Positions 491 through 8,440 of a stretch of DNA of 64,000 nt are shown in pieces. The DNA is taken from NCBI RefSeq assembly GCF_000745005.1, contig NZ_JQNB01000001.1:4209501-4273500 (forward strand). The letters are read 5' to 3'. The translations under genes were made by a program, and so were the position numbers. Under the pieces are notes generated by a model. It was given only the letters and a program-made list of their open reading frames with translations, did not search any database and had not been told where the DNA came from. Within the stretch, counting starts at the first letter, position 1; the number at the start of each line of letters is the position of its first letter. This DNA is from Luteibacter sp. 9135 (GTDB lineage: Bacteria; Pseudomonadota; Gammaproteobacteria; Xanthomonadales; Rhodanobacteraceae).

Positions 491-513
491 TTTCGCACAT
501 CGTGCGCTCCTAC
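491..513 (-). repeat. REP-like palindromic repeat, overlaps the tcdA stop
   Basis: One copy of the family read on the minus strand as GTAGGAGCGCACGATGTGCG plus a short tail (here ending in AAA). The core is a GCGCAC/GTGCGC palindrome. The TAG inside GTAGG serves as the tcdA stop codon (510-512). At least fourteen further copies or variants occur in intergenic DNA of this window. Confidence 0.8.
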
Positions 514-1355
514 CCCTGCGCGGGTGAGGGCGGGCCGTTTGGGGATGGGATGGCGGTCAGCTTTTCGAGGGCCTTGCCTACGGCGGCGAAGGCGAAGGCG
601 CCGGTGACGTGCGTGGCGGCGCCCAGGCCGCCGCCGCAATCGAGCTTCACCGCGTCGCTGCCGGCGGGTCGCACACCGCAGACGCTGCCATCGGGCTGCG
701 GGTAGCGCACATTTTGCAAGGAATACACGGCGGATACGCCGAAGAAGCGATCGGGGTTGCGTGGGAAGCCGTGCTCCTGGCGGAGCTTCTTCCGGATCAT
801 GCTGAGCATGGCGTCGTGCTCGGTACGCGAAAGGTCGCGCACGCGCACCTGCGTGGGGTCGGTGCGGCCGCCCGCCGCGCCCACCGTCACCAGGGGCAGC
901 TTGCGGCGGCGGCACCAGACGATGGTCTCCAGCTTCACCTTCAGGGCGTCGCAGGCATCGATCACCACGTCGTAGTTGCGGTCCAGCAACTCGTCCAGGC
1001 TTGACGGCGTGAGGAAACGCTCCATGGCCTCGAGCCGGATCGTCGGGCTGATCGCATGCGCGCGTTCGGCGATGACGCCCACCTTGGGCCGGCCGTACTG
1101 GCCATCCAGCGCGTGCAACTGGCGGTTGGTGTTGGACAGGCAGACATCGTCGCCATCGATCAGCGTCAACCGGCCGACTCCGCTGCGCGCCAGGGCTTCA
1201 GCCGCCCACGAGCCCACACCGCCCACCCCGATGACGCATACGTGCGCCCGGGCGAGGCGGTCGAGGCTGCCGCGCCCGTACAGGCGCTCGATGCCGGCGA
1301 AGCGTTCCGCCTGTGCGGTACCCACATGATTTCCAGCAGAAAGGACTGTGCTCAT
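510..1355 (-). CDS. tcdA: tRNA threonylcarbamoyladenosine dehydratase TcdA (CsdL)
   Basis: A 281-residue member of the ThiF/MoeB/HesA E1-like family. TcdA uses ATP to cyclise t6A to ct6A at position 37 of ANN-decoding tRNAs. The nucleotide-binding glycine loop GVGGVGS is at residues 43-49, followed by an acidic strand (LIDGDDV) and NTNRQ, which is characteristic of TcdA rather than ThiF or MoeB. DACDALKVK and the C-terminal SVCGVRPAGSDAVKLDCGGG stretch also fit the family. Length is normal. It is transcribed divergently from the cytochrome c' gene at 1421. The stop codon sits inside a REP element, so the last few residues (PSPAQG) may come from repeat-flanking DNA. Confidence 0.9.
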   Translation of the reverse strand: MSTVLSAGNHVGTAQAERFAGIERLYGRGSLDRLARAHVCVIGVGGVGSWAAEALARSGVGRLTLIDGDDVCLSNTNRQLHALDGQYGRPKVGVIAERAHAISPTIRLEAMERFLTPSSLDELLDRNYDVVIDACDALKVKLETIVWCRRRKLPLVTVGAAGGRTDPTQVRVRDLSRTEHDAMLSMIRKKLRQEHGFPRNPDRFFGVSAVYSLQNVRYPQPDGSVCGVRPAGSDAVKLDCGGGLGAATHVTGAFAFAAVGKALEKLTAIPSPNGPPSPAQG

Positions 1356-1420: not shown

Positions 1421-1810
1421 ATGCGTGCGTTGCTCCTCGTCATCCTCGGCCTCGTGGTCGGCGCGATGGGCGCGACCTTCGCGCTGTCCGCCCTGCGCCA
1501 GGGCACGCCGTTCCACAGCGGCGTCATGGCCGTGATGCAACATCGCATGGGAGTACTGCGAGCCAACGTGCGGGCGAGGCAGTGCGATGCCAAGGTGTCG
1601 GCCGGGCAACTGGCCGCCCTGCGCGTCTCCGCCAGCGATATCCGCGACGCCTTTCCCGACATGGATGCCCCCTTCTTCGCCGCCGGCGACGCCTTGGGCC
1701 AGGCCGTGGATGCGGCGCGTGCCACCGCACCGGTCAGCTGCGACGTCCTGGCCACCGTCCTCAAGCCCATCGGCGATGCCTGCCAGGCCTGCCACCGGCA
1801 GTACCGCTGA
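1421..1810 (+). CDS. Cytochrome c'-like monohaem protein, membrane-anchored or exported
   Basis: A protein of 129 residues with an N-terminal hydrophobic segment (about 3-24; signal peptide or anchor) and a single haem motif CQACH at 121-125 followed by RQYR at the very end. A lone CxxCH at the C-terminus of a roughly 130-residue helical protein is the signature of class II cytochromes (cytochrome c'/c556 family). These bind NO or CO, or carry electrons, in the periplasm. Cys55 and Cys107 are additional cysteines. An upstream in-frame ATG (1388) would start inside the promoter region, so 1421 is preferred. Only 3 bp separate its stop from the sensor kinase start, so it is probably the first gene of the quorum-sensing operon. 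Its role there is unknown. Confidence 0.75.
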   Translation: MRALLLVILGLVVGAMGATFALSALRQGTPFHSGVMAVMQHRMGVLRANVRARQCDAKVSAGQLAALRVSASDIRDAFPDMDAPFFAAGDALGQAVDAARATAPVSCDVLATVLKPIGDACQACHRQYR

Positions 1811-1813
1811 CCC

Positions 1814-3211
1814 ATGACCGACGCCGGACCCACCATGGACACGCCCACCGACAAACCAGCCGGGCCGCAGGGCTTCCTGCGCATGCGCTGGTGGCTGCTG
1901 GTACGGGCCATGGCACGTTTCGAAACCACCATGTTCCTGCGCACGCGCTACTCGCAGCCGAAGATGGTGGCGATCGGCGTCGTCGGCAGTTTCTGCCTTG
2001 CGGTCTATTACCCGGTCTGGGCCTACCTGTTTCCGCAGCCGTACGAAAACCTGCCCATGCGGCTGGCCTGCTGCGCCACGTTCATCCCGCTCGCGCTGCT
2101 GCCCTGGTGGCCACGGCGCCTGCGTACCCAGCTGCCGACCTACTGGTATTTCGCGATGACGGTCGCCATGCCGTTCTTCGTCGGCTACATGACCTTGCGT
2201 AACGCGACCCCGGCGTGGCTGATGACCCACCTGGCCTGCGTCATGCTGCTGATGATGCTGTTCGACCTGGTCAGTTTCCTGCTGGTGTTTTCCGTGGGCA
2301 GCGTGCTGGCCGGCCTGGTCTTCGTGCTGTCGCCGGAAGCCCACTTGCACACCCGCACCATGCTCGAATACATCCCCCTGTTGCTGTTCGGCATGGTCGG
2401 CGGGGCTACCTGCACCGTGTCCTCGACCATGGCGGAGCAATCGCGCATCGATGCCCTCACCGCCGCGTCCAACAACATCGCGCACGAGCTACGTACGCCG
2501 TTGGGCTCGTTGCGCATCGCGGCGCGCGCGGTGGCTCGCTACATGCCCGACCTGATCCGCAGCCACCGGCTTGCCGAGGGCGAAGGCCTGGCCGTGCCGG
2601 AAATGCGGGCGCAGAACCTGCACGCACTGGAGCGAAGCATCGGGGTGATGGAGCGCGAGGTCACCTACGCCAATACCATCATCGACATGCTGCTGCTGTC
2701 GGCAAGGCCGATCGGCGAGGTGCCCTTGTCACGCCTCCAGGCCCGCGATTGCGTGGAACAGGCCCTCCGGCGTTTTCCTTACGGGTCGCGCTCCGAGCGA
2801 GATCGCATCACCCTGTCGCCCCTGGGCGACTTCCCCCTTTACGGCGAAGAAAGCCTGGTGGTCCACGTGTTGTTCAACCTGCTGCGCAATGCACTTTTTC
2901 ATACCGATCGCGCGGGCAAGGGCGAGATCCGCGTGTTCATCGAACCCGCCGAAGGCGTCAACCGCATCCGCGTGCACGACACCGGACCGGGCATCCCTGC
3001 GGACGTGCTTCCCCGTGTTTTCAACCGGTTTTATTCCTATTCCAGCGACAGCGCCGGCACCGGCGCCATCACGGGCCTTGGAATAGGACTCGCTTTTTGC
3101 CGCGCGGCGATGGAGCATATGGGCGGTGGCATCGCATGCCGTACCGAACTGGGTGAGTTCACCGAATTCACCCTGACCTTCCCGCATTCGGAACCCGGGG
3201 ACCGGCAGTGA
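1814..3211 (+). CDS. Six-TM sensor histidine kinase, CqsS/LqsS-like (alpha-hydroxyketone receptor candidate)
   Basis: 465 residues. The N-terminal half has about six hydrophobic helices (roughly 51-72, 83-97, 110-125, 135-150, 152-174 and 186-200) with no large periplasmic loop, the architecture of CqsS and LqsS. The kinase core follows: H-box AHELRTPL with phospho-acceptor His224, N-box NLLRNA at 355-360, G1 DTGPG at 389-393 and G2 GLGIGLAF at 421-428. There is no C-terminal receiver, so it resembles Legionella LqsS more than the hybrid Vibrio CqsS. It overlaps the next gene by 4 bp (GTGA) and the synthase gene is two genes downstream. The cognate signal is therefore inferred to be an alpha-hydroxyketone made by that synthase. 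Assignment as a histidine kinase is certain; the ligand is inference. Confidence 0.85.
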   Translation: MTDAGPTMDTPTDKPAGPQGFLRMRWWLLVRAMARFETTMFLRTRYSQPKMVAIGVVGSFCLAVYYPVWAYLFPQPYENLPMRLACCATFIPLALLPWWPRRLRTQLPTYWYFAMTVAMPFFVGYMTLRNATPAWLMTHLACVMLLMMLFDLVSFLLVFSVGSVLAGLVFVLSPEAHLHTRTMLEYIPLLLFGMVGGATCTVSSTMAEQSRIDALTAASNNIAHELRTPLGSLRIAARAVARYMPDLIRSHRLAEGEGLAVPEMRAQNLHALERSIGVMEREVTYANTIIDMLLLSARPIGEVPLSRLQARDCVEQALRRFPYGSRSERDRITLSPLGDFPLYGEESLVVHVLFNLLRNALFHTDRAGKGEIRVFIEPAEGVNRIRVHDTGPGIPADVLPRVFNRFYSYSSDSAGTGAITGLGIGLAFCRAAMEHMGGGIACRTELGEFTEFTLTFPHSEPGDRQ

Positions 3212-4248
3212 CGACGTTGAACGCACAGGGCGACATCCAGCCTTTCCATTTCCCGACGACCACCGTGCTCGTCGACGACCACGAGGAATACCTCGACGTG
3301 GTCCCGCTCCTGCTCGACCCCATGGTCCGGGTGCGCACCTTCAGTTCGCCGCGCAGCGCGCTGGCCACGCTGGGCAACAACGGCAGCCGGCCGGTGCCCG
3401 GGGGCGGCTGGCTTTACCGCTGGAAGGACCGCCCCTCGGAAACCCAGGAGCTGGTAGCCCTGGACATCGACTCGATCCACCGCGTGGTCTACGACCCGGA
3501 ACGCTTCGCCGAGATCTCGGTGGTGGTGGTGGACCAGGCCATGCCCGAGATGGACGGCATCACCTTCTGCAAGCGCCTGCCCAACCCGCACATCGGCAAG
3601 ATCCTGCTCACCGGTCGTGCCGACGACGCCACGGCGATCGACGCCTTCAACTCGGGCGTGATCGACCGGTTCATCCGCAAGAACGATCCCCTGGCTATCG
3701 AAAAACTGCAGACCGCCATCGTCGAACTGCAGCGCCGCTACTTCGACCGCGCCAGCGCCTTCGTGGCCGAGACCCTCGCCCTGGGCAATTTCCGCTTCCT
3801 GCGCGACCCGGCGTTCCGCGAGGTATTGCAGAGCGTCACGGCCACGTTCCAGCCGGTGGAGTGCTACGTGCACTGCAACCCGACCGGGCTGCTGCTGGTG
3901 GACGCCTGGGGCATCGGGCGTTTTCTGCTGGTGCAAACCGACGAGGACCTGCGCACACACTATGAAATTGCGGCAGATCTGGGGGCGCCCGGCGCCGTGC
4001 TGGATGCCCTGCGCAGCGGCGACGCCCTGCCCTGGTTCAATTCGCGCGACGGGTTCTACCACAAGGGCGTGGAGCACCCGGAAAACCACATGTACGCAGC
4101 CACCGCGGTGTCCGGCGAGCAGTGGTACTACTACGCCCTGATCGACGAAGTCGAACGCTTCCGCCTGCAGCACGTCAAGTCGTACCGCACCTGGCTCCGC
4201 GAGCAGGACCTGAGCCTCGCCGCCGACAGCCGGCCCCGATTCATCTAA
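3208..4248 (+). CDS. Response regulator with atypical receiver and novel C-terminal output domain (LqsR-like by context)
   Basis: 346 residues, starting at a GTG that overlaps the kinase stop (4 bp). The receiver signature is complete but stretched: acidic pair Asp23-Asp24, phospho-acceptor Asp109 in VVVVDQAMPEMDG, Thr135 in LLTGRAD and Lys158 in IRKND. About 45 extra residues (roughly 55-100, with a Gly/Pro-rich GGGWLYRWKD stretch) separate the second and third strands. The C-terminal 170 residues show no helix-turn-helix, GGDEF, EAL or HD motif that I recognise; they are aromatic-rich (ECYVHCNPTG, GEQWYYYALID). Position between the kinase and the synthase makes it the expected partner of the upstream kinase. 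The output mode is unknown. Confidence 0.75.
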   Translation: MTTLNAQGDIQPFHFPTTTVLVDDHEEYLDVVPLLLDPMVRVRTFSSPRSALATLGNNGSRPVPGGGWLYRWKDRPSETQELVALDIDSIHRVVYDPERFAEISVVVVDQAMPEMDGITFCKRLPNPHIGKILLTGRADDATAIDAFNSGVIDRFIRKNDPLAIEKLQTAIVELQRRYFDRASAFVAETLALGNFRFLRDPAFREVLQSVTATFQPVECYVHCNPTGLLLVDAWGIGRFLLVQTDEDLRTHYEIAADLGAPGAVLDALRSGDALPWFNSRDGFYHKGVEHPENHMYAATAVSGEQWYYYALIDEVERFRLQHVKSYRTWLREQDLSLAADSRPRFI

Positions 4249-4410
4249 TCGCGTTACCGTCCCCGGTCTCTCTGGCATTGCCAGGGGCCGGAGGACTTCC
4301 CCTCCTTTGGTCTCTCTCGTATTCGCGCCCGCCTGGGCGAGGCTGGCGCGCGCGTCGTTCGTGGTGAACGACGACGCGTTCATCGCCCATGACATCACAG
4401 AGAGATGACC
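4249..4410 (+). promoter_or_regulatory. Structured leader between the response regulator and the alpha-hydroxyketone synthase
   Basis: About 160 bp of non-coding DNA inside an otherwise tight operon. It contains two copies of GGTCTCTCT (starting near 4264 and 4311) and a perfect 8-bp hairpin CGTCGTTC-gtggt-GAACGACG (4353-4373) about 40 bp before the start codon. A second short inverted repeat (cattGCCAGGGGCC region) is possible. This length and structure suggest post-transcriptional control or an internal promoter for the synthase. No T-tract follows the hairpin, so a simple intrinsic terminator is unlikely. Confidence 0.35.
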
Positions 4411-5676
4411 ATGGAAAACGTTTCCGTTCTGCACCGCGTTACCCGGGCGCCCGCGCTTCCCGCTTTCGTAGCGACGCGGGTCGCTCGATTTCACAACGAA
4501 CGTGTCGCCATCGACTGGGGCGGCCGTCACATTTTGCGAGGTCGCCGCCCCGAATCCGGCGACCTGATGCTCCAGAGCAACGATTACCTCGCCATCGCCG
4601 GCCATCCCACGATCGTCGAGGCCCAGCGCGATGCCCTGGCCGCCGGCGGTCTGGGCATGATGATGTCCGCCCTGTTCCAGCAGGATGCCGACCAGCCGTT
4701 GCACCGTGTGGAGGCGGAACTGGCCCGGGCGGTCGGCAGCGAGGACGGCATCCTCGCCCAGTCGGGCTTCGCCGCCAATGTCGGCTTGCTGCAATCCATC
4801 GCGGGCGAACGGGTGCCGGTGTACGTGGACATGCTGGCGCACGCGTCCTTGTGGGAGGGTATCCGCAGCGCGGGAGCGAAGGCGGTGCCGGTACTGCACA
4901 ACGATGTGGGCCACCTGGAGCGCCAGGTGCTGCGCCATGGGCCCGGCGTCGTCGTGGTGGATGCGGTGTACAGCACCAACGGCAGCATCGCGCCGCTGGA
5001 GGCGATCGCCAACCTGTCGCAGGCGCACGGCTGCGTGCTGGTGGTCGACGAATCACACTCGCTGGGCACCCACGGCAGCCGCGGCGAAGGACTGGTCGCC
5101 AGCCTGGGGCTCAACGACCGCGTGCATTTCATCACCGCCAGCCTGGCCAAGGCGTATTGCTCACGTGCAGGCTTCGTCGCCTGCACCTCGCGCTTCAAGG
5201 ACTACTTCGGGTGCGAGGCGTTACCAGCGATCTTCAGCTCGTCGTTGCTTACTCATGAACTGACCGGCCTGTCCGCGGCCCATCGGGTCATCCAGACCGA
5301 GGGCTGGCGGCGCCAGCGCTTGCGCCAGATCACCCGTCGCGTCCGCGCGGAACTGACCGAACTGGGTTACCCGATCGCCGACGGCACCGAGCAGATCGTG
5401 GCCTTCGAAGCCGGACAGGAATTGCTGACCGGCAAGGTCCGCGATGTCATGGAGCGCCACGGGGTGTTCGGTTCGGTCTTCAGCGCACCGGCCACCACCG
5501 TCAACCGCTCGCTGCTGCGCCTTACCCTCAACGCGGGCATGAGCGACGACGACGTCTCGCGGCTCATCGAGGTATGTCGCGTCGCCCGGGATGCCATGGA
5601 CGTGCCGGCATGGAGCGCGTCACGCCGTGCACGACGGGACGGCGAGCGGGAGGTGTCCACCTCCGAAGTGGCCTGA
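4411..5676 (+). CDS. cqsA: Alpha-hydroxyketone autoinducer synthase, CqsA/LqsA family
   Basis: About 421 residues, a fold-type I PLP enzyme of the alpha-oxoamine synthase group (BioF/Kbl/SPT relatives). CqsA condenses an acyl-CoA with S-adenosylmethionine or 2-aminobutyrate to give the precursor of a CAI-1/LAI-1-type hydroxyketone signal. Counting from the ATG at 4405, visible residues are LQSNDYLA near 56-63, DESHSLGTHG at 215-224 with Asp215 and His218, and the PLP lysine Lys249 in ASLAKAYCSRAG. The gene follows a histidine kinase and a response regulator, as in cqs/lqs loci, rather than a biotin or threonine-degradation gene. An ATG at 4405 is also possible, but GAGAG at about 4400-4404 sits at the right distance for 4411. 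The C-terminal tail is charged and probably unstructured. Biotin-synthase-like KAPA synthase is the alternative, less likely given the context. Confidence 0.85.
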   Translation: MENVSVLHRVTRAPALPAFVATRVARFHNERVAIDWGGRHILRGRRPESGDLMLQSNDYLAIAGHPTIVEAQRDALAAGGLGMMMSALFQQDADQPLHRVEAELARAVGSEDGILAQSGFAANVGLLQSIAGERVPVYVDMLAHASLWEGIRSAGAKAVPVLHNDVGHLERQVLRHGPGVVVVDAVYSTNGSIAPLEAIANLSQAHGCVLVVDESHSLGTHGSRGEGLVASLGLNDRVHFITASLAKAYCSRAGFVACTSRFKDYFGCEALPAIFSSSLLTHELTGLSAAHRVIQTEGWRRQRLRQITRRVRAELTELGYPIADGTEQIVAFEAGQELLTGKVRDVMERHGVFGSVFSAPATTVNRSLLRLTLNAGMSDDDVSRLIEVCRVARDAMDVPAWSASRRARRDGEREVSTSEVA

Positions 5677-5684
5677 CGACAGGT

Positions 5685-6542
5685 TCATAACCCCTCAGCG
5701 ATCCGGCACGCGATCGCTGAGGGCGCCTTCATCCAGGTGAAGTGATCCGCCGCCTGCCCGTCCAGGTCCACCGGGGACACCAGGTGGACCTGGCTTGGCG
5801 CATCCGGCATCTTGCCCAGCAGGAATTCCAGCGACGCCGCGGGGGCCAACCAGTCGTCGCGGAGCCGCAGGGCCAGCACGGGCGCCGACTGTCGTCGCAG
5901 TGCGGCTTCCAGATCGACGCGAAGACCCTTTGCCGAATACGTGCCTTTACGCCCGCTGCGCGACCAGTCGGCGATGACCCCGCGCGCCTCGTTGCCGCCG
6001 AAGCCGATCCGCCGACCCGGCAGTCGCCCGACCAGGTTCGCGAGGGCGGGAGCCGCGATGTAGGCAAGCACGACCCAGGATTTGAAGCGTCGCCAGTACG
6101 GCGCCCCGCTGCCGACCAGGACCACGCCCGCCGGTGGCTGGATCGCCATGGCCGCCAGGAGGCAAGCCAGCTGACCGCCGAGGCTGTGCCCGCCGACGTG
6201 GACGGGCACGTCCGGTACCGAGCGGCGCAGGGCCGCAAGGCTGGCCGGCAGGTCGTCGCCCAGCAATTCGCGGTAACCCCAGTTCGCGCGGCGCGATGCG
6301 CGTCGGTCGCTCGAGCCCAGACCGCGCCACTCATGCAAGGCGACGGCTACCCCACGTGCCGCCAGCGCACGGGCCAGGCCGTCGTAGTGACGCGCGCCGA
6401 CACCCATGGCGGGCAGCCAGAGTAGCGCCGCACGAGGCGGGGCCGAGGCCGGCCGGTAGATCAGGAGGTCCGCCGATGCGCCGTCCGTCATGCGGAGGGG
6501 CTGGGACGAGGTGACGATGTCGGGTGTGCTGTCGTCGGTCAT
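5685..6542 (-). CDS. Alpha/beta hydrolase (COG4757-like)
   Basis: 285 residues from the ATG at 6542. The nucleophile elbow GGHSLGGQ places the catalytic serine at about Ser120. An oxyanion/strand region EWRGLGSSDRR, a downstream RDDW acidic candidate and a late His in ADHFTW complete a plausible triad. The family consists of cytoplasmic serine hydrolases whose substrates are mostly unknown. A longer frame exists to 6587, but that start would lie inside the csp terminator, so 6542 is chosen; GGGAGGG of the terminator stem then acts as ribosome-binding site. It converges on the autoinducer synthase gene. Turnover of an acyl or ketone metabolite is possible but unsupported. Confidence 0.8.
   Translation of the reverse strand: MTDDSTPDIVTSSQPLRMTDGASADLLIYRPASAPPRAALLWLPAMGVGARHYDGLARALAARGVAVALHEWRGLGSSDRRASRRANWGYRELLGDDLPASLAALRRSVPDVPVHVGGHSLGGQLACLLAAMAIQPPAGVVLVGSGAPYWRRFKSWVVLAYIAAPALANLVGRLPGRRIGFGGNEARGVIADWSRSGRKGTYSAKGLRVDLEAALRRQSAPVLALRLRDDWLAPAASLEFLLGKMPDAPSQVHLVSPVDLDGQAADHFTWMKAPSAIACRIAEGL
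5692..5723. repeat. 12-bp-arm inverted repeat at the 3' end of the synthase/hydrolase convergent pair
   Basis: CCCTCAGCGATC (5692-5703) and GATCGCTGAGGG (5712-5723) form a perfect hairpin with an 8-nt loop. It lies within the last codons of the hydrolase and 15 bp after the synthase stop, so it may act as a terminator or RNA-stabilising hairpin for the synthase transcript. There is no T-run. Confidence 0.4.
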
Positions 6543-6544
6543 AC

Positions 6545-6577
6545 AAAAAACCCTCCCGGCGCGAAGCACCGGGAGGG
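6545..6577 (-). terminator. Rho-independent terminator of the first cold-shock gene
   Basis: Read on the minus strand, CCCTCCCGG and CCGGGAGGG form a 9-bp stem with a short loop, followed by six T's and then, three bases later, the ATG of the hydrolase gene. Confidence 0.85.
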
Positions 6578-6621
6578 TCAAAGTCATGCAGGAACGGGCG
6601 GCGCGAGGCAGCCCGAGGGCA

Positions 6622-6825
6622 TTACTTCGGAACGACGTTGTCAGCCTGCGGGCCCTTCTGGCCCTGGGTCACGGTGTATTCCACCTTCTGACCCTCGGCA
6701 AGCGACTTGAAGCCGTTGCCCTGGATGGAACGGAAATGCACGAACACGTCCGGACCACCCTCATCCTGAGTGATGAAGCCAAAGCCCTTGGCGTCGTTGA
6801 ACCACTTCACAGTACCAGTTGCCAT
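6622..6825 (-). CDS. Cold-shock domain protein (CspA family)
   Basis: 67 residues, the usual CspA size, beginning [21 protein letters not shown]1 (KGFGFI) and RNP2-like VFVHF motifs are present, so it binds single-stranded RNA or DNA as a chaperone or antiterminator. The frame extends upstream to 6939 but homology starts at the ATG at 6825. It has a strong terminator downstream and a long untranslated leader upstream, as is common for csp genes. A close paralogue lies at 7904-8113, across the composite repeat. Confidence 0.93.
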
Positions 6826-7097
6826 CACACACACCTCTATCCAACACACTAAAAACCCGACTCGGCGAGCCGGCGACTTACTGGGCATGCTGGACCGGGT
6901 GAGGCGATGAGCGTGGATTACGCGCTTACATCGGGTCACTCGCGTAACCGCGCAGACTCAGTGGGGTCGATCATAACCGTATTTTCGCGAAGTTCTGTAG
7001 GGGAACCCCTACATGGGACGAATTTTTGACGTCTATCACGTGATTTGGGTCGAAATCTTGGGAAAAAATGACTTTGTGAAGGGCTCTGGAGGGGGTG
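6826..7097 (-). promoter_or_regulatory. Leader and upstream region of the first cold-shock gene, with a 16-bp perfect palindrome
   Basis: Roughly 270 bp without a gene. The most striking element is GTAGGGGAACCCCTAC at 6997-7012, a perfect 16-bp palindrome. On the minus strand it is followed by AT-richer sequence with a possible -10 box (TTATGAT near 6970), so it could be an operator upstream of the csp promoter. The next 130-odd bases before the start codon would be a long 5' leader. Confidence 0.4.
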
Positions 7098-7903: not shown

Positions 7904-8113
7904 TTAGGCCTTCTGGACTTCCTCAGCCTGCAGACCCTTCTGGCCGTTGACGACCTTGAAGGAGACCTTCTCGCCTTCGGCGAGGGACTTGAAGCCGTTA
8001 CCCTGGATGGCGCGGAAGTGCACGAACACGTCCGGGCCGTTCTCACGGGAGATAAAGCCGAAGCCCTTGGCGTCGTTGAACCACTTGACGGTGCCGATTT
8101 CACGATCCGACAT
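7904..8113 (-). CDS. Cold-shock domain protein (CspA family), second copy
   Basis: 69 residues from the ATG at 8113. The core [15 protein letters not shown] and [19 protein letters not shown] is nearly identical to the 6622-6825 paralogue, while the N-terminus (MSDREI) and C-terminus (QAEEVQKA) differ. Upstream in-frame codons to 8152 carry no homology and are excluded. It has its own terminator, so the two csp genes are separate transcription units in the same direction. Confidence 0.93.
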
Positions 8114-8440
8114 AGAAACACTCCAAACAATTTTTACGAATAAAACCGGCAACTTGAAATAGCTGCCGCCTAACTGGTGTGCAAGGAAACGCGAGGAGCG
8201 AAGCGATGTTGCGGATACGTGATCAGCTGCATCGGGTCAAACTAACTCTATGACCCCGGCAAACACAGTCCGGCGACTATACAGCGCCATGTCACAAATA
8301 GCGATGCCGCTCAGGCCGCATCCGTGGTCGGCTCACTGACGTAACTTTCACGGCATCGGCGCACATGCTTGCGGGCGGTCGCAAAAGCACAGCGATCTCA
8401 CCTACCATCCGCTCACGTTCTAACCAAGGGGGACCGCTCC
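8114..8440. other. Intergenic region between the second csp gene and the lipoprotein gene
   Basis: About 327 bp, lower in GC than its surroundings, holding the csp leader (minus) and the lipoprotein promoter (plus). A TATAGT-like -10 sequence for the csp gene is seen on the minus strand near 8275-8282. A stretch resembling part of the first csp leader (CATCGGGTCA around 8231-8240) is shared. No further gene is apparent. Confidence 0.4.

What the first reader, a model, noticed from the sequence alone, without database searches (positions are those of the whole stretch)
1421..5676. Complete alpha-hydroxyketone quorum-sensing module with a cytochrome c' as lead gene
A CqsA/LqsA-type synthase, a six-TM histidine kinase without receiver and a response regulator sit in one operon, the arrangement of Vibrio cqs and Legionella lqs. 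I know of no described alpha-hydroxyketone system in this family of bacteria. The first gene, 3 bp before the kinase, is a class II cytochrome c. That neighbour is unexpected and could tie signalling to NO or redox state.
Basis: partly seen in the sequence, partly recalled or inferred. Interest (0 to 1): 0.82.

Follow-up and report, generated by a model that had tools for sequence, protein, structure and literature searches.

The report
Lqs-type hydroxyketone quorum-sensing operon in Luteibacter
These bacteria carry a complete set of genes for making and sensing a Legionella/Vibrio-type chemical signal; the haem-protein gene in front of it looks like an ordinary old neighbour, while the stretch of RNA in front of the signal-making gene may be a control switch.

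Summary
The module is real. Window 1814-5676 encodes an LqsS/CqsS-type kinase, a full-length LqsR-type regulator and a CqsA/LqsA-type synthase (534.8 bits, equivalog cut-off 428) that groups with CqsA, away from the genome's own Kbl and BioF. The genus is Luteibacter: the synthase is in 19 of 19 genus genomes and 30 of 197 family genomes searched. Databases already name such proteins; my paper searches found no study in this family.

The cytochrome reading is not supported. It is a core gene (172 of 197 family genomes) beside tcdA with or without the module, and an invariant Met at the distal haem position argues against an open NO-binding haem.

Two new leads. (1) The synthase leader (4302-4416) is a candidate regulatory RNA: a covarying hairpin and loop-to-3' pseudoknot, with a helix that may mask the ribosome-binding site (mixed support). 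(2) Two unnamed genera keep kinase and regulator at this site but have no synthase; a tree test favours loss, and 10 of 10 of these receptors lack a Phe found in 107 of 107 synthase-paired receptors.

Product, ligand and RNA function were not tested experimentally.

The parts
510..1355 (-). tcdA (tRNA cyclic t6A37 synthase family), divergent neighbour; marks the ancestral chromosomal site
   Evidence: NF011696 294.1 bits, just under its cut-off of 304; neighbour of the cytochrome with and without the signalling genes
1421..1810 (+). class II cytochrome c (c'/c-556 type), N-terminal membrane helix, CxxCH at the C-terminus; resident core gene, not part of the module
   Evidence: PF01322; profile A1 to cytochrome c' structures; AlphaFold model pLDDT 86; distribution
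1814..3211 (+). LqsS/CqsS-type membrane sensor histidine kinase, H224, no receiver
   Evidence: HATPase_c, HisKA; alignment to V. campbellii CqsS
3208..4248 (+). LqsR-type response regulator, receiver Asp109, unknown output half
   Evidence: full-length match to PDB 6sy9, E 3e-50 with the window protein alone; alignment A3
4309..4320 (+). leader helix P1, 5' arm (GGUCUCUCUCGU), complementary to the ribosome-binding site
   Evidence: fold of 4249-4440, z -4.44; arms co-adapted between genera; mixed controls
4324..4350 (+). leader hairpin P2 with loop GGGCGA at 4335-4340
   Evidence: covariation in 19 Luteibacter leaders
4353..4377 (+). leader hairpin P3, variable in sequence (approximate limits)
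   Evidence: fold; consensus
4383..4388 (+). UCGCCC, pairs with the P2 loop (pseudoknot)
   Evidence: 98.2% of cells paired, one compensatory change
4397..4410 (+). ribosome-binding site AGAGAGA and P1 3' arm
4302..4416 (+). whole candidate regulatory leader (model R1)
   Evidence: R1 92.7 bits; next best place in the genome 24.4 bits
4411..5676 (+). CqsA/LqsA-type alpha-hydroxyketone synthase (residue numbers here count from the in-frame ATG at 4405; PLP Lys249)
   Evidence: NF005526 534.8 bits > 428; PDB CqsA 3hqt E 1e-103; tree
5685..6587 (-). alpha/beta hydrolase, convergent neighbour; a homologue is near the site in 11 of the 17 fetched loci without kinase, regulator and synthase
   Evidence: PF12146

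Best explanation
A working Lqs-type quorum-sensing system inherited within Luteibacter and some relatives. Inferred mechanism: the PLP enzyme (4411-5676) joins an acyl-CoA to an amino-acid-like donor (SAM in Vibrio) to give an aminoketone that becomes an alpha-hydroxyketone; the signal leaves the cell and binds the membrane domain of the kinase (1814-3211), shutting off its autokinase; the phosphate state of the LqsR-type regulator (3208-4248, Asp109) carries the message on. The module lies between a resident tcdA-cytochrome pair and a hydrolase gene; the cytochrome is a bystander that probably shares the transcript in Luteibacter. A structured leader probably masks the synthase ribosome-binding site, so signal output may also be set at translation. 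Shown by computation: gene identities, conserved residues, synteny, distribution, tree place, RNA covariation. Inferred: product, ligand, phosphoflow, co-transcription, and that the leader regulates.
For: Synthase: equivalog cut-off passed, 534.8 bits against 226.1 for BioF; best solved relatives are V. cholerae CqsA, 171 of 381 aligned columns identical and 6 of 9 acyl-pocket residues named in PMC3285556 identical; tree. Kinase: aligned to CqsS with H224 and the FPQPYENLP motif. Regulator: full-length LqsR match. Conservation: synthase in 19 of 19 genus genomes, regulator 91-98% identical to the window's in the 18 others. Bystander cytochrome. Leader: z -4.44; P2 plus pseudoknot 97.2% of cells paired, 4 pairs changed on both sides (shuffled mean 1.2; 2 of 500 shuffles as high), above the slid versions on each measure; masking arms of 29 leaders pair better with their own partner than with exchanged ones (0 of 5000 permutations as good, relatedness not removed).
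Against: No product was measured and three pocket residues differ (V32 to L44, F257 to C270, C346 to S360), so the exact signal is open. The regulator's targets are unknown. Masking of the ribosome-binding site is not rare by itself: 8 of 43 start regions scanned in the window are as closed and 6 of 43 as stable, the synthase's own included. Against shuffles of the upstream part the masking pairing stands out (10 or fewer of 200 as strong) in 8 of 21 family leaders and 3 of 15 control leaders; fold stability is not notable (z above -2) in 7 of 21, Pinirhizobacter among them. Within Luteibacter alone the arms are only marginally co-adapted (234 of 5000) and weak in L049, L057 and L061. The pseudoknot rests on one compensatory change and two G-U changes, and breaks in one row.
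Confidence: 0.82

Rival explanations
1. The cytochrome is a working part of the module: a periplasmic haem sensor that gates the kinase by NO or redox state.
For: It lies 3 bp upstream and co-directional here; within 66 bp or overlapping (by automatic choice of starts) in the 18 Luteibacter loci that have it; upstream of 26 of 28 complete modules and of 10 of 10 synthase-less kinase-regulator pairs at this site. In L. pneumophila Lqs is linked to NO through Hnox1 (PMC11237717, passages; a different protein).
Against: 172 of 197 family genomes have it, most without the module; same place beside tcdA in 17 of 19 synthase-negative loci; absent from two complete modules; Met36, invariant in 27 module-bearing and 19 synthase-negative loci, aligns with Leu16, the distal residue (role recalled) of A. 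xylosoxidans cytochrome c', suggesting a six-coordinate c-556-like haem. The Met, the Cys pair and CxxCH do not differ between the two sets.
Confidence: 0.06
2. The enzyme is another member of the alpha-oxoamine synthase family (BioF, Kbl, serine palmitoyltransferase or a secondary-metabolite enzyme) and the kinase-regulator pair senses something else.
For: Fold and motifs are shared; BioF profile gives 226.1 bits.
Against: Equivalog and tree results; a separate Kbl (721.5 bits) and BioF (383.1 bits, under the cut-off of 426 on a cut piece) in the same genome; fixed link with LqsS/LqsR genes.
Confidence: 0.04
3. The leader conservation is DNA-level: an operator with dyad symmetry or plain slow evolution, not an RNA switch.
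For: Hairpin DNA can bind regulators; the 19 leaders of A4 are from one genus; the opposite strand scores 19.5 bits with the model; stability and masking alone are not exceptional.
Against: The loop pairs with a site 43 nt downstream with a compensatory change; the masking arms differ together between genera whose leaders are otherwise unlike.
Confidence: 0.25

Closest known systems
Legionella pneumophila Lqs (LqsA, LqsS, LqsR)
   Same: Synthase, sensor kinase without receiver, and the special LqsR-type regulator (full-length match to 6sy9)
   Different: Co-directional here, regulator overlaps the kinase gene; in L. pneumophila lqsA-lqsR-hdeD-lqsS with individual promoters and an extra kinase LqsT (PMC5289986 passages)
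Vibrio Cqs (CqsA, CqsS)
   Same: CqsA family, PLP Lys and most of the acyl pocket; CqsS membrane domain motif
   Different: In the V. campbellii locus read, CqsS is longer (681 aa), no LqsR homologue was found in the 11 kb, and the genes converge
Janthinobacterium Jqs (JqsA/S/R)
   Same: Synthase, kinase and regulator in one cluster; the synthase affects violacein (PMC3566124, passages)
   Different: Different family (Oxalobacteraceae); no masking leader in the passages read; signal structure not known there either
Cytochrome c' and c-556 (class II cytochromes c)

Membership tests
CqsA/LqsA alpha-hydroxyketone synthase | Score above the curated equivalog cut-off | tested here: met
   NF005526 534.8 vs 428 bits
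CqsA/LqsA alpha-hydroxyketone synthase | Groups with CqsA, outside BioF/Kbl | tested here: met
   64-row tree with V. campbellii CqsA inside and own Kbl/BioF outside; quick tree, long outgroup branches
CqsA/LqsA alpha-hydroxyketone synthase | PLP lysine and acyl pocket of CqsA | tested here: met
   K236 of CqsA (role recalled) is K249; 6 of 9 pocket residues identical, 3 changed
CqsA/LqsA alpha-hydroxyketone synthase | Makes an alpha-hydroxyketone or aminoketone | not testable with these tools
   needs LC-MS
LqsS/CqsS sensor kinase | CqsS-type membrane domain plus His kinase, no receiver (LqsS type) | tested here: met
   hydropathy alone resolves five of six helices
LqsS/CqsS sensor kinase | Head-group Phe (V. 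cholerae F162; mapping inferred) | tested here: met
   F192; F in 107 of 107 synthase-paired kinases compared, some genomes counted twice
LqsR response regulator | Full-length LqsR match with receiver Asp | tested here: met
   6sy9, residues 9-334 of 345, E 3e-50; D109
LqsR response regulator | Phosphorylated by the cognate kinase | not testable with these tools
   biochemistry
Cytochrome c' (class IIa) | Class II c-type sequence with C-terminal CxxCH | tested here: met
   PF01322, profile match to c' chains
Cytochrome c' (class IIa) | Open distal haem side that binds NO | tested here: inconclusive
   invariant Met36 at the Leu16 position suggests a sixth ligand; no spectra
Known Rfam riboswitch or leader | Match above the gathering score | tested here: not met
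   4200-4480 against 4227 families: 6 matches up to E 5, none near its gathering score; lowest E 0.28 (Streptomyces-metH, 19.1 of 50 bits)

The most novel reading that the evidence does not exclude
The synthase leader is a new family of regulatory RNA. In Luteibacter a hairpin loop pairs with a site just before a masked ribosome-binding site; Tahibacter, Oleiagrimonas and Mizugakiibacter keep the masking design with other sequences. It gates how much signal is made in response to a small molecule (possibly the substrate SAM or the product), an RNA or a protein. In two sister genera the synthase was lost while the receptor kept evolving with a changed head-group residue, so the old signal receptor has been retuned to another input.
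Probability: 0.28. Interest if true: 0.75.

Novelty: new member of a known kind. Interest (0 to 1): 0.55.

Why it matters
It adds a genus-wide alpha-hydroxyketone circuit in environmental bacteria, so the poorly known LqsR branch could be studied outside Legionella. The synthase-less relatives make a clear test of how a receptor evolves after its signal is lost. If the leader is a switch, it would be a new way of setting signal output.

Tried and rejected
Cytochrome as a module part: rejected by distribution and position.

Co-evolution of the synthase pocket (C270) with the receptor tail residue (C200): Luteibacter C/C, Mizugakiibacter S/S, Tahibacter F/F looked striking, but over 107 pairs it does not hold (F with A 24, C with A 13), so I dropped it.

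Ribosome-binding-site masking as exceptional by itself: not so in this window. The site core was mostly closed (unpaired probability 0.22 or less) in 17 of 21 family leaders against 2 of 15 control leaders from other bacteria, but the controls differ in base composition and the family leaders are related, so I give this little weight; the same call's shuffle tests are mixed (see the Against line).

SAM/SAH riboswitch: no Rfam match. Model R1 over 41 sources found the 7 Luteibacter sources given and a weak place (17.6 bits, E 0.04) that is the Oleiagrimonas synthase leader on the right strand; it did not find the leaders of the Pinirhizobacter, Tahibacter, Mizugakiibacter or betaproteobacterial loci given. 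A search for cqsA with riboswitch and autoinducer synthase gave 2 papers, seen as a listing only, neither by its title about this.

AHL synthase (PF00765) in the genome: no hit, but no control genome rang either, so absence is not shown. The scan's promoter-like and terminator-like sites are at chance level. The own Kbl and BioF and a 240-bit enzyme of G112 (L214, no kinase or regulator in its 12 kb) served as outgroups.

Names of the two synthase-less genera: not found; the nearest named regulator is from a Dyella sp. (79% identical to that of G003).
Full report
What is there. The cytochrome passes the Pfam class II model (30.1 bits, cut-off 26.5). The kinase has HisKA and HATPase domains and no receiver; its membrane part aligns to a Vibrio campbellii CqsS almost without gaps and keeps FPQPYENLP. 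The regulator matches the solved LqsR-type protein 6sy9 over residues 9-334 (E 3e-50 with the window protein alone) and has the receiver Asp at 109. The synthase scores 534.8 bits to NCBI's alpha-hydroxyketone synthase equivalog (cut-off 428) and 226.1 to BioF; its closest solved relatives are V. cholerae CqsA. Six of the nine acyl-pocket residues listed in PMC3285556 (passage) are identical; V32, F257 and C346 are L44, C270 and S360.

Is it BioF or Kbl? No. In a 64-row tree (thinned from 99 sequences) it sits with family synthases inside a clade that holds V. campbellii CqsA, and the genome's own Kbl and BioF lie outside (families named). The tree is a quick one with long outgroup branches.

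Who has it. The synthase is over the cut-off in 30 of 197 family genomes, among them 19 of 19 of the genus; in 19 of 299 of the order, the 19 in this family; and in 8 of 369 of the class. Public databases already name many of these proteins as alpha-hydroxyketone or CAI-1 synthases (120 best of 2309 listed). In print I found nothing for this family: Rhodanobacter with hydroxyketone, 0 papers; cqsA with Luteibacter, 0; Luteibacter with quorum sensing, 36 papers, of which I saw a list of 25 with abstract starts; a six-term search, 18 papers, 15 listed. Most papers of subscription journals are not held. A review (passages) names Ralstonia, Nitrococcus, Burkholderia and Polaromonas; the Janthinobacterium paper was seen as passages.

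Arrangement. I fetched 31 loci. In 28 the order is tcdA (reversed; not found in L039), cytochrome (26 of 28), kinase, regulator, synthase, those after tcdA in one direction. L040 (broken), L064 (a second synthase alone) and L065 (contig end) are the other three. In betaproteobacteria the kinase-regulator pair mostly faces the synthase; Cupriavidus has no LqsR hit.

The cytochrome is a resident. Its profile finds 172 of 197 family genomes at E 1e-10 and 63 of 151 order genomes, 39 of them outside the family. I fetched 19 synthase-negative loci from 17 genera, out of some 140 such genomes with the cytochrome: tcdA is 73-786 bp away in 17, and 17 of the 19 have no kinase, regulator or synthase there. 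Two complete modules lack it. So the module was inserted beside it, or lost from beside it. Met36, C55, C107 and CxxCH are invariant in 27 loci with the module and in the 19 synthase-negative ones, two of which keep kinase and regulator. Met36 aligns to Leu16 of A. xylosoxidans cytochrome c', the residue over the haem (recalled); a Met there suggests a c-556-like, closed haem (inference). The model is good (pLDDT 86) but matches c' and b562 equally.

Synthase-less relatives. The regulator is in 43 of 197 family genomes: 30 with the synthase; one more with a synthase fragment at a contig end; 10 in two genera (4 of 4 and 6 of 6 genomes) with cytochrome-kinase-regulator at the tcdA site and no synthase over the cut-off in the genome; and 2 with a distant pair elsewhere. 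In the kinase-regulator tree the 10 form one clade inside the complete systems. Holding the complete systems together is rejected (p-AU 0.0012; 41 rows after dropping 13 of 54; the test came after a first tree had been seen). So loss of the synthase is the better reading; the tcdA tree is too poorly resolved to count the losses. In V. cholerae CqsS, F162 and F166 set the head group and C170 the tail (PMC5467912, passage). I mapped these by the F-x3-F-x3-F spacing of V. campbellii, an inference, since V. cholerae CqsS was not fetched. The first is Phe in 107 of 107 kinases paired with a synthase (some genomes counted twice), but Leu or Met in 10 of 10 synthase-less ones at this site, where the membrane part has also diverged more, relative to the kinase part, in most comparisons. 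This is one clade, so at most a few events. The two distant pairs keep Phe.

The leader. Between regulator and synthase, 4249-4440 folds 4.4 sd below shuffles. In 19 Luteibacter leaders (A4) hairpin P2 and the pairing of its loop GGGCGA with UCGCCC before the ribosome-binding site have 97.2% of cells paired, 4 pairs with changes on both sides (shuffled mean 1.2) and exceed the slid versions. A model finds it once strongly in the genome (92.7 bits; next 24.4, not examined). Upstream pyrimidine runs can mask the purine ribosome-binding site: AAACCUCUC with GAGAGGUUU in Tahibacter, GACUCUUUCG with CGAGAGAGUC in Oleiagrimonas. Across 29 leaders own arms pair better than exchanged ones (-14.89 vs -12.76 kcal/mol, 0 of 5000), which mostly reflects differences between genera; within Luteibacter it is marginal (234 of 5000). 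Against: masking as such is common in the window, 8 of 43 start regions including this one; the masking pairing beats shuffles clearly in only 8 of 21 family leaders, and 7 of 21 are not notably stable. No Rfam family fits. A precedent for control of signal production after transcription: in V. cholerae CAI-1 production is thought to be held down at low density, presumably through Qrr RNAs (PMC5467912, passage).

Verdict. A real, database-named member of the Lqs/Cqs kind, not found in print for this family. The cytochrome link is not supported. The leader and the changed receptors are the new leads.

Noticed in passing
L064 / L216 (another contig of G010, Luteibacter): A second synthase, 53% identical to the window's and over the cut-off (470 bits), with no kinase or regulator in 12-13 kb.
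   Followed up: partly
L217 and L218 (G094, G194): Distant LqsS-LqsR pairs (about 36% identical) without a synthase, beside similar unrelated genes in both genomes; they keep the head-group Phe, so they could listen to others' signals.
   Followed up: partly
L164 (Lysobacteraceae bacterium PS02065): The same co-directional kinase-regulator-synthase order with no cytochrome or tcdA found; its kinase-regulator groups with L217/L218.
   Followed up: partly
window 6622-6939 and 7904-8152, minus strand; inverted repeats 7242-7305/7660-7723 and 7122-7184/7741-7803: Two cold-shock-like genes (named by eye, not searched) about 1.28 kb apart, 77% alike over 130 nt, with two nested pairs of about 64-nt inverted repeats, 94% and 89% complementary, between them.
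   Followed up: no
window cytochrome residue 42: The window has Arg where the other 26 module-bearing loci and 18 of 19 synthase-negative loci have His, in the helix of the distal Met.
   Followed up: no
G000:C1:2671703-2671806: Second-best match of the leader model in the genome (24.4 bits, E about 0.005, rough).
   Followed up: no
L040 (G036, Tahibacter): The cluster is broken inside the regulator gene; the other part and the cytochrome lie on another contig: an insertion or an assembly break.
   Followed up: no
proteins P0035, P0073, P0101: Family-type synthases carry the names Bacillus sp. NP157, Paenarthrobacter and Microbacterium in public records; the first lies on a contig of the same length as that of G033, a Luteibacter, so these look like mislabelled or contaminated records.
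   Followed up: no
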